Below, piece by piece: positions 37,238 through 39,697 of a DNA stretch of 64,000 nt. Position numbers and translations under genes: made by a program. Source of the DNA: Rutstroemia sp. NJR-2017a BVV2 (Eukaryota > Ascomycota > Leotiomycetes > Helotiales > Rutstroemiaceae). The DNA lies in NCBI GenBank assembly GCA_002946415.1, contig NJPS01000016.1, forward strand, positions 434,001-498,000. The letters are read 5' to 3'. The notes under the pieces were generated by a model. That model saw only the letters and a list, made by a program, of their open reading frames with translations, did not search any database and was not told the origin of the DNA. The first letter of the stretch is position 1. Each line of letters opens with the position of its first letter.

Positions 37238-39697
37238 TCAACTATTTTTAGCTAGCTCTATAGCCTTCGCTGCCGCTTCTTCGAAATCGTCATATGCATG
37301 TAACTGCAATCCACTTTCCGCAATCTATATCCACATAGTCAGCCATCAATCATCCTACCTACTCATATCTCTTCCCCAGCTTCGAAGAACGGGAAAACTC
37401 CAGGGTAAAACAGAAGGTAACTCACAATCCTCTGCCCCTCCTTCTCATTCGTCCCCCTAATCCTCACCACCACCGGAATCCTCATCTCCAACTCCTCAAA
37501 CGCCAACAACACCCCCCTAGCAATCATATCCCCCAACGTCAGGCCGCCAAAAATATTCACAAAAATAACCTTAACCCTTTCATCCGCTAATATCACCTGG
37601 AAACTCTTCTTCACCGTCTCGCTCGTCGCTTTTCCGCCCGTGTCGAGAAAATTCGCGGCCTGGCCTCCGGCGTCGGCGAGTGCGTCAACGGTGTTCATGG
37701 CGAGTCCGGCGCCGTTTACCAGGGTCCCGATGTTGCCGGGGCCGGAGAACTTGATGTAGACTATGCCATCTTTTTCGGCTTCGAGTTCGTGGGGGTCTTC
37801 GAGGGATGTGCGGCGGAGGGAGTGGATTTCGGACTGCCGTTTGGTGCTCCGGAAGGCGGCGTCGTCGAAACCGAAGTTGGCGGTGACGATTTTGAGGTCG
37901 TTGGCTTCTTCGATGAACGTGGTTTCGAGGATGAAAGCTTCTTTGCTGTTATAGAGAGATATAAGGGATTCGATTAGATTACTTAGAGATTCGGTTGATG
38001 AGTCGAGGCCGAGATGCGATGCGATTGCGGAAAGTTGTGATGGATCGGGACCGGTGCGGTAGTCGAAGGGAAATTTTTCAGTTTGAGAATGCAACTGGGA
38101 AGGATCTTCCGCTGCGGATACAATCACACATGGTGAAAGGTTCTTCCGATCAATACCGATGGCTAGAAGACGTCTTCTTCCATTTCCAGAGTCTTCAGAT
38201 ACTGTGATGCCTCGTTCACGAAGTAGATCAAATGAGTCATCCTGATGAAGATATATACTCCGCTTTTGTTGAGTTGGTATTCTTGTGGATGTGGTCGTTG
38301 GCCGTATTCTTCTTATGGTGTGCATAGATCTTCGTTGTGAGGCTCCAGTTGTAGCTGCGCCAGTAGTTGCTCTTCCCGATTGCCCCAATAATCGTTTCAT
38401 AGCATCACCAAACTTGGCTGGATGGTTGACCATAGTCACCCCAGCATGTTCGAGATATTTGATCTTTGTTAAAGCATTTGGTTCACCGGGTAATGTAAAG
38501 GCTCCAGCATGACCCATGATCCTACCCGGAGCTGCATGAACACCTCCGATGAGTGCTGCAATTGGTCTGAATAGCAGTTAGAAAACTTCCTTGGGAAAGA
38601 CTGGGGAATATACTTGGGATTTGGAGAACGCTGCTTGTACTCTCTGATCCAGTCCGCGGCCTCAAGTTCTGCCTCACCACCGATTTCACCGATCAAGACA
38701 ATGCCTTCAGTATCTTCATCATGCTCAAATACTTTTAAAGCATCTACGAAGTTAGTTCCAGCCAAAACATCTCCGCCCATTCCAATGCATAGACTTTGCC
38801 CAAGTCCAGCTCTAGATGTTGATGCCACAGCTATGATAATCAGCATCAGACTTACGAAGCCGTAAGAATACTAACCCTCATAACTCAGAGTCCCCGACTT
38901 AGCAATAATTCCTATCCGGCCTGCCATAAAACAGGGAAGTGGCTGAAAACCAATTCTGCATTTCCCAATGGCTGATATAATACCGGGGGCATTTGCTCCT
39001 ACGAGTCGGCTTTTCGACTGGGTCTTTAAAATAGAATGGATCTGGTAAAGCTATTAGGCATAAGAATAAGGATATGTGAGCTTTGGTAACATACTCTCAG
39101 CATGTCATGAATAGGAATATGCTCCGCAACTGCAACGATGAGCGGTACTTCCGCCTCGATTGCTTCCTCAATCGCACCTGGCGCTTGATGAGCTGCTACA
39201 TATATACCAGTTGCATCTGGTTTCAGTTTCTCCATTGCCTATGGGAAGTTAATGAATGATGGATTTGTGGGTGACATCTTGCCCATGAAGGAAAAGAAGG
39301 CGTACTTCTCTCACGGTAGGCAATACCGGTAACCCCAAGTGTTCTCCATTCTTTCCAGGCGTCACACCACCAACGATGTTCGTTCCCCAGTCTATCGATT
39401 CCTTTGCATTTGCCGTTGCCTGTTCTATATCTCAACATCATATTGATCATTGCTTACTCCACTAGCGAGTATCTCTTACCTGTCTACCTATACACCCATG
39501 TTCGTCATTCATCTGACCTACAGGAATCGGCAAAAGAACATACCTGTAAAACCCTGAAATATTACTCTTGTGTGACTTCCGATCTTCAGATTGCCAATTG
39601 TATCTTCATATCCACATCTTCTCGCCGTCTTGCTGAAATTTCTCGTGCTTGTAAAACTACCCCGCGGCAAGCTTGTGATTGTTTTGGAGCGGATCAT
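37238..39697 (-). CDS. Fused alpha-beta succinyl-CoA-ligase-like protein, mitochondrial
   Basis: One polypeptide carries the alpha (CoA-binding) and beta parts of a succinate-CoA-ligase-like enzyme. Eight exons fit: 39697-39544, 39487-39480 (8 nt), 39419-39306, 39238-39095, 39041-38876, 38830-38614, 38566-37426, 37324-37238. They sum to 2031 nt, 676 aa. The N-terminus (MIRSKTITSLPRGSFTSTRN) is a mitochondrial-type presequence. Alpha features: VIFQGFTG, WGTNIVGGVTPGK, LPVLPTVREA, GIIAKSGTLSYE, and the active-site His loop GRIMGHAGAF. After a Ser/Thr/Arg linker the beta part has a divergent ATP-grasp region, then NGAGLAMNTVDALADAGGQ, FLDTGG and IFVNIFGG. Canonical subunits are separate genes, so this may be a paralogue with altered activity. 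Whether it makes succinyl-CoA is not shown. Confidence 0.88.

What the first reader, a model, noticed from the sequence alone, without database searches (positions are those of the whole stretch)
39480..39487. Predicted 8-nt micro-exon in the fused succinyl-CoA-ligase-like gene
The first exon ends in phase 1 after GFT-G and the third begins in phase 0 with ATANAKES, so joining them directly breaks the frame. An 8-nt exon (minus strand gtagacag) between a TATAG acceptor and a GTAAGA donor, in introns of 56 and 60 nt, restores the conserved loop as GFTGRQATANAKES and makes the whole CDS divisible by three. Exons this small are rare in fungi, and automatic gene callers will miss it and truncate or mis-splice the CoA-binding domain.
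Basis: partly seen in the sequence, partly recalled or inferred. Interest (0 to 1): 0.78.

Follow-up and report, generated by a model that had tools for sequence, protein, structure and literature searches.

The report
Eight-base exon in fungal CoA enzyme
A fungal metabolic gene very probably contains an exon only eight bases long that supplies three amino acids of the enzyme's CoA-binding loop, at a spot where several relatives' annotations go wrong; it is a neat example of a known kind of thing and has not yet been seen in RNA.

Summary
The frame argument alone is weak. Two single-intron joins also keep the frame (GFTEQ, GFTDIEQ), and 3745 of 5000 shuffled introns offer some in-frame exon of 20 nt or less. 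The protein sequence decides. Of 437 open splice products, the micro-exon form fits the family best, by about 10 bits over either single intron. Only 19 of 200,000 shuffles yield G-[K/R]-Q. None of 252 homologs has GFTE or GFTD. Short ORFs from relatives break after GFTG (10 of 12) or after GFTG[KR]Q (2 of 12), the two intron positions here. The two most similar annotated relatives, Clarireedia and Rutstroemia, lack the CoA-binding domain and start in exon 4. Best reading: two neighbouring introns, 8 nt apart, isolate Gly-Arg-Gln of the CoA-binding loop; inclusion is probably constitutive. No RNA of this species was available, and no relative is shown to have both introns. New member of a known kind.

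The parts
39544..39697 (-). Exon 1 (154 nt), MIRSK...VIFQGFT-G, ends in phase 1
   Evidence: N-terminal homology
39488..39543 (-). Intron 1, 56 nt, GTATGT...TATAG, phase 1
   Evidence: 10 of 12 short relative ORFs lose homology right after GFTG
39480..39487 (-). Exon 2, the 8-nt micro-exon GTAGACAG; with the last base of exon 1 it encodes Gly-Arg-Gln
39420..39479 (-). Intron 2, 60 nt, GTAAGA...AACAG, phase 0
   Evidence: 2 of 12 short relative ORFs break right after GFTG[KR]Q with V next, which allows GT
39306..39419 (-). Exon 3 (114 nt), ATANAKES...LPTVRE
39239..39305 (-). Intron 3, 67 nt
39095..39238 (-). Exon 4 (144 nt), AMEKLKPD...HDMLR; its Met is where the annotated Clarireedia and Rutstroemia proteins start
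38876..39041 (-). Exon 5 (166 nt)
38614..38830 (-). Exon 6 (217 nt)
37426..38566 (-). Exon 7 (1141 nt), end of the alpha-like half and most of the beta-like half
37238..37324 (-). Exon 8 (87 nt) with TGA stop
39425..39429 (-). Rival TATAG acceptor (exon start 39424); joined straight to exon 1 it gives the in-frame GFTEQATANA

Best explanation
Two ordinary spliceosomal introns, one in phase 1 after GFT-G and one in phase 0 after G-R-Q, lie only 8 nt apart in a gene for a fused succinyl-CoA-ligase-like protein. The 8 nt between them are a coding micro-exon. Together with the last base of exon 1 it supplies Gly-Arg-Gln of the conserved GFTG[K/R]QA loop in the CoA-binding domain. Both introns are short, so the spliceosome most likely recognises each across the intron (intron definition) and needs no room on the exon itself; inclusion is therefore probably constitutive. 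The micro-exon most likely arose because two intron positions that occur separately in relatives are both present here. Shown: sequence, sites, frame, family fit, and breaks at each of the two positions in relatives. Inferred: actual splicing, constitutive use, intron definition, and the two-intron origin.
For: Exact sites and open 2031-nt CDS. Of 4432 GT-AG paths (zero or one internal exon of up to 60 nt, introns at least 40 nt) 437 are open and in frame; the 8-nt form ranks first against an HMM of all 120 listed homologs, anomalous ones included (1236.4 bits; single introns 1226.5 and 1226.3). Chance of G[KR]Q: 19 of 200,000 shuffles. Loop conserved: GFTG[KR]QA in 98 of 120 full-length homologs listed and 93 of 120 short metagenome ORFs listed; GFTE or GFTD in 0 of 252, of which 241 have GFTG, 1 GLTG and 10 neither. 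GFTGRQ aligns without gap to GFTGKQ of succinyl-CoA synthetase alpha chains in the 4 alignments shown. Of 12 short relative ORFs, 10 break after GFTG and 2 after GFTG[KR]Q. For 4 of those 10 the next residues allow an exact consensus donor, chance 0.077 each, binomial 0.005. One of the 10, P0252, is 94.9% identical over 59 aa to Botrytis elliptica P0038, whose annotated protein reads GFTGRQATANARES. Gene-model anomalies peak at the loop (16 of 120).
Against: No RNA reads and no fungal genomic DNA of relatives could be searched. No relative is shown to have both introns; a close Cadophora-like ORF (P0133) reads the loop without a break, so the micro-exon is not shared by the whole order. The Pfam CoA_binding model alone separates the forms poorly (64.3 vs 60.6 and 62.8 bits), and a 4-nt variant (GFTGIQ) is only 3 bits behind. 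By eye the branch-point-like motifs of introns 1 and 2 (ATGAC, ATGAT or TTGAG) are weaker than the CTRAY-like motifs in introns 3-7, and in intron 2 two AGs (GAG, TATAG) come before the AACAG acceptor (sequences). Of the 10 ORFs that break after GFTG, 4 allow only donors with one mismatch and 2 (P0246, P0251) only with two; in P0251 the next residue is R, so its break could also lie one codon later. The read-through inserts of six mis-annotated relatives cannot encode the whole AG-GN[K/R]Q-GT exon.
Confidence: 0.9

Rival explanations
1. No micro-exon: one 119-nt intron from 39543 to 39425 with the TATAG acceptor; the protein reads GFTEQATANAKES, one residue shorter and without the loop's second glycine.
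For: In frame, open, canonical GT-AG; TATAG comes before AACAG, so a first-AG scan could choose it. Pfam score only slightly lower.
Against: About 10 bits worse against the family; GFTE in 0 of 252 homologs; the glycine is present in 111 of 113 homologs that have a residue there; leaves the roughly 1-in-10,000 GRQ match unexplained.
Confidence: 0.05
2. No micro-exon: one 113-nt intron to exon start 39430, protein GFTDIEQATANAKES, one residue longer.
For: In frame and open; 1226.5 bits; Pfam score 62.8 against 64.3.
Against: GAG acceptor; GFTD in 0 of 252 homologs; about 10 bits worse than the micro-exon form.
Confidence: 0.01
3. A different micro-exon, for example 4 nt (39483-39480) with exon 1 extended by 4 nt, giving GFTGIQATANA.
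For: Open, second in rank, only 3 bits behind.
Against: Needs the non-consensus donor GTTCTT in place of GTATGT (sequence); position 53 is K or R in 107 of 115 homologs with a residue there, never I.
Confidence: 0.01
4. The locus is a decaying copy or holds an assembly error, so the apparent exon structure has no meaning.
For: The stretch occurs twice in the assembly, and the most similar annotated relatives lack the domain.
Against: The other copy is 100% identical over the 19,901 bases compared, which points to one locus held twice by the assembly; all other exons are open and the protein is 78% identical over its whole length to Stipitochalara; the catalytic histidine is kept.
Confidence: 0.02

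Closest known systems
20-nt micro-exon of Xlr2 in Trichoderma virens (PMC11121469, abstract and passages seen)
   Same: Filamentous ascomycete, tiny coding exon in a conserved domain, length not a multiple of three, missed by annotation, orthologs truncated
   Different: Xlr2 exon is longer, RNA-proven and switched by glucose; here 8 nt, metabolic enzyme, no RNA evidence, no sign of regulation
Micro-exons of Phanerochaete chrysosporium P450 genes, shortest exon 6 bp (PMC1184071, abstract and passages seen)
   Same: Sub-10-nt coding exons beside short introns in a fungus
   Different: Basidiomycete, many genes; here one ascomycete gene and one identified loop
Micro-exons and intron definition in fission yeast (Romfo et al. 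2000; seen only as a reference in PMC11121469; paper not held)
   Same: Proposed mechanism for exons too short for exon definition
   Different: Tested there by experiment according to PMC11121469; only inferred here
Succinyl-CoA synthetase alpha chain, e.g. 1euc, 6g4q, 1jkj
   Same: GFTG[K/R]Q loop, GHAGA histidine, CoA-binding and ligase domains
   Different: Here fused to a beta-like half; scores below NCBIfam cut-offs

Membership tests
Coding micro-exon | Internal exon of at most about 30-36 nt | tested here: met
   8 nt; size limits as given in PMC11121469
Coding micro-exon | Canonical splice sites on both sides, introns of workable length | tested here: met
   TATAG/GTAAGA, introns 56 and 60 nt; the other five introns of the gene model are 45-101 nt
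Coding micro-exon | Encodes conserved residues in frame | tested here: met
   GRQ of GFTG[KR]QA; best of 437 open products
Coding micro-exon | Present in mature mRNA | not testable with these tools
   No RNA of this species. P0022, a 682-aa ORF with GFTGKQ on a 2353-nt contig, may be a relative's transcript but its nature is unknown
Coding micro-exon | Same exon bounded by both introns in orthologs | tested here: inconclusive
   Each intron position seen in relatives, not both in one; P0133 seems to have neither
Switch-like regulated micro-exon | Condition-dependent inclusion and skipping | not testable with these tools
   Skipping keeps the frame only with the acceptors before 39424 or 39430; no expression data
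Succinyl-CoA ligase alpha subunit | CoA_binding and Succ_CoA_lig domains, catalytic His | tested here: met
   PF02629, PF13607 above cut-off; His in 119 of 120 homologs
Succinyl-CoA ligase alpha subunit | Curated NCBIfam subunit cut-off | tested here: not met
   302.3 bits against 336, 299.2 against 353.2; membership as a true alpha subunit is not claimed
Succinyl-CoA ligase beta subunit | Full ATP-grasp half and nucleotide-site residues | tested here: not met
   No ATP-grasp_2 (PF08442) hit at E 0.001 for our protein, though some homologs carry one; matches begin at about position 110-160 of beta; positions aligned to N199 and D213 (numbers recalled) vary widely

The most novel reading that the evidence does not exclude
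The micro-exon is a molecular switch: including it with the AACAG acceptor gives the CoA-binding loop GFTGRQ, while skipping it with the neighbouring TATAG acceptor (8 minus 5 nt, so the frame is kept) gives GFTEQ, a full-length protein with a broken CoA loop. The cell could thus toggle between an active and a CoA-blind form of the enzyme.
Probability: 0.07. Interest if true: 0.6.

Novelty: new member of a known kind. Interest (0 to 1): 0.36.

Why it matters
It marks a concrete, checkable site where some fungal gene models lose the CoA-binding domain of a widely conserved metabolic protein, the most similar annotated relatives among them. It also offers a natural case in which two intron positions found singly in relatives appear together and cut out an exon of under three codons, useful for testing intron definition and how micro-exons arise in ascomycetes.

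Tried and rejected
Origin of intron 2 by tandem duplication of intron 1 plus the micro-exon (64 against 60 nt): alignment no better than 5000 shuffles, global fraction 0.36, local 0.68; rejected.

Looking for the whole micro-exon inside the read-through inserts of six mis-annotated relatives by back-translation: none compatible. For four of the six (P0010, P0017, P0025, P0030) 0 of 200 shuffled inserts were compatible, for P0039 1 of 200, for P0099 44 of 200. Little can be learned, since the callers may have removed part of the stretch.

Taking P0133 (Cadophora-like) for a transcript because it crosses the intron 4 site: wrong, since its homology ends at SYEG, the place of intron 5 here, so it is probably genomic. 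It counts against sharing of the micro-exon across the order.

Finding fungal genomic DNA of relatives: genome contigs gave 36 bacterial loci (33-42% identity), not used; in viral contigs 5 stretches matched a pattern and none was a relative.

Own-genome paralog: the succinyl-CoA-synthetase-alpha-like gene at G000:C43 reads GFTGKQGT without a break, so it has no such micro-exon.

Papers: the listings (25 of 61 papers listed) showed no report of this micro-exon; they cover only open-licence papers, and only passages of a few were seen. Two searches and passages gave no residue-level statement on the GFTG loop binding CoA, so that role is recalled knowledge plus alignment. Passages seen (PMC11590231, PMC3990503) only note that very short exons are hard to map. 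Branch-point comments are by eye; no splice-site model was trained.

Full report
What is there. On the minus strand the gene model runs 39697-37238 in eight exons: 39697-39544, 39487-39480, 39419-39306, 39238-39095, 39041-38876, 38830-38614, 38566-37426, 37324-37238. The CDS is 2031 nt, codes 676 aa and has no internal stop. Exon 2 is GTAGACAG between TATAG and GTAAGA, with introns of 56 and 60 nt. The other five introns of the model are 45-101 nt.

Exon 1 can be joined in frame to two acceptors other than the one at 39419: exon start 39424 gives GFTEQATANA, 39430 gives GFTDIEQATANA. Both are open. Also, 3745 of 5000 dinucleotide shuffles of the 124-nt stretch offer some open in-frame exon of 20 nt or less with introns of at least 40 nt. 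So 'it restores the frame' does not by itself show a micro-exon.

What decides. The residues do. Only 19 of 200,000 shuffles contain an AG-8 nt-GT exon that encodes G-[K/R]-Q. I enumerated 4432 GT-AG paths from exon 1 to exon 3 (none or one internal exon up to 60 nt, introns at least 40 nt); 437 were open and in frame. Scored against an HMM of all 120 listed homologs, anomalous models included, the 8-nt form came first with 1236.4 bits, a 4-nt variant second with 1233.4, and the single-intron forms had 1226.5 and 1226.3. The general Pfam CoA_binding model separates them only weakly: 64.3, 62.8 and 60.6 bits. Of the 120 full-length homologs listed (of 1775 found), 98 have GFTG[KR]QA, 4 GFTGKLA, 1 each GFTGKQG, GFTGFFG and GFTGMNG, and 15 have no GFTG match of this form. 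Of 120 short metagenome ORFs listed (of 789 found), 93 have GFTG[KR]QA, 25 GFTGKLA, 1 GKV, 1 GKK; they were ranked by similarity to a query that holds the loop, so they are not an unbiased sample. None of all 252 proteins has GFTE or GFTD; 241 have GFTG, 1 GLTG, 10 neither. In the 4 alignments shown, the loop aligns without gap to GFTGKQ in solved succinyl-CoA synthetase alpha chains. That this loop contacts CoA is recalled, not tested.

Evidence from relatives. The most identical annotated proteins, from Clarireedia jacksonii (93% over 82% of the query) and a Rutstroemia (89% over 84%), lack PF02629 and begin MEKLKPD, the Met of exon 4; so the window is probably from the same family (inference). 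Several other models fail at this loop, for example GFTG-NIISYPYLVIDFS-QATTNA in Bisporella, GFTG-MYPCID...SAK-ATANA in Lachnellula willkommii, GFTGKQ-VWICLLEYSP-ATANA in Rhynchosporium, and a Hyphodiscus fragment that starts at ATANA. Insertions or deletions against the window protein touch residues 45-54 in 16 of 120 homologs, the highest of the 29 ten-residue bins between 35 and 324; the next are 9 (35-44) and 5 (85-94). These counts include truncated models.

A search with exon 1 plus its read-through found 12 short proteins (33-103 aa allowed). Ten lose homology right after GFTG, where intron 1 starts here; two right after GFTG[KR]Q with V next, where intron 2 starts here (P0249 KQ-VG, P0250 RQ-VR). 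In one of the ten (P0251) the next residue is R, so the break could lie one codon later. ORFs that run on through the loop would mostly exceed the length limit, so 12 of 12 is partly selection; the two precise break positions are not. For 4 of the 10, the following residues allow an exact consensus donor (GTATGT twice, GTGAGT, GTACGT); chance per pair 0.077, binomial 0.005 (the list of consensus donors is mine). Four more (P0241, P0247, P0248, P0252) allow a donor with one mismatch, two (P0246, P0251) only with two. P0252 matches Botrytis elliptica P0038 at 94.9% over 59 aa; P0038's annotated protein has GFTGRQATANARES. So intron 1 very probably exists in Botrytis too; whether intron 2 does is not known.

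Of the 120 short metagenome ORFs, 115 contain H[D/N]xxRV or close to it, the place of intron 4 here, after an intact loop; in those printed the homology ends there (45 of 120 printed). Such lineages seem to lack introns 1-3, and the loop is contiguous in what is probably genomic DNA. One ORF, P0133, 95.9% identical over 194 aa to a Cadophora protein, crosses the intron 4 site and ends at SYEG, the place of intron 5 here; so a member of the same broad group seems to lack introns 1-4. Introns 1 and 2 are therefore patchy, and the micro-exon most likely exists because both occur together. A paralogous alpha-type gene in the same genome has GFTGKQGT unbroken.

How it likely works. Each intron is short enough to be recognised across itself; intron definition is the mechanism argued for fission yeast by Romfo et al. 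2000 (seen only as a reference). Under it an 8-nt exon needs no exon-spanning complex. By eye, introns 3-7 carry CTRAY-like branch motifs (TTAAC, CTAAT, CTGAT, CTAAC, CTGAC), while introns 1 and 2 have weaker ones, and in intron 2 the AGs of GAG and TATAG precede the AACAG used here (sequences). Inefficient splicing or a minor GFTEQ isoform is thus possible.

Tested and not supported: a tandem-duplication origin of intron 2; presence of the complete micro-exon in the read-through inserts of six relatives.

Standing of the claim. Micro-exons in fungi are known: a 20-nt one in Trichoderma Xlr2, where orthologs were also truncated in annotation (PMC11121469, abstract and passages seen), and exons down to 6 bp in Phanerochaete P450 genes (PMC1184071, abstract and passages seen). 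The Xlr2 paper's abstract says functional micro-exons had not been described in filamentous fungi before. This one is a new, very small member of a known kind, at a functionally telling place. The confidence of 0.9 rests on protein conservation; RNA is missing.

Noticed in passing
window 29556-49456 and both window ends: The stretch is held twice in the assembly: 19,901 bases of contig C27 are 100% identical, and the window's first 1000 bases recur on C37 and its last 1000 on C27, both listed as 100%. Probably a duplicated haplotype or an assembly artefact.
   Followed up: partly
window 63224-63648: Element of about 425 bp with perfect 36-bp terminal inverted repeats; relatives of 71-99% identity on contigs C39, C52, C35. 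Looks like a MITE.
   Followed up: partly
window 38566-37238: The beta-like half of the fused protein matches only the later part of solved beta chains, and the positions aligned to E. coli beta N199 and D213 (numbers recalled) vary freely in 120 homologs, while the alpha His (119 of 120) and the Glu aligned to 208 (120 of 120) are kept. The fused protein may no longer use nucleotide in the usual way.
   Followed up: partly
L053, about 2390-2530 (G000:C43): The paralogous succinyl-CoA-synthetase-alpha-like gene seems to have a small exon of about 29 nt (FHAQQAIEYG) just after GFTGKQGT, read by eye.
   Followed up: no
window 39094 (intron 4): Most short metagenome ORFs of this family reach the same place, HDxxR-V (115 of 120 match the motif), suggesting that intron 4 is old and widely shared while introns 1-3 are not. 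Three of the other five read HDIMR-A there, which would fit a GC donor.
   Followed up: partly
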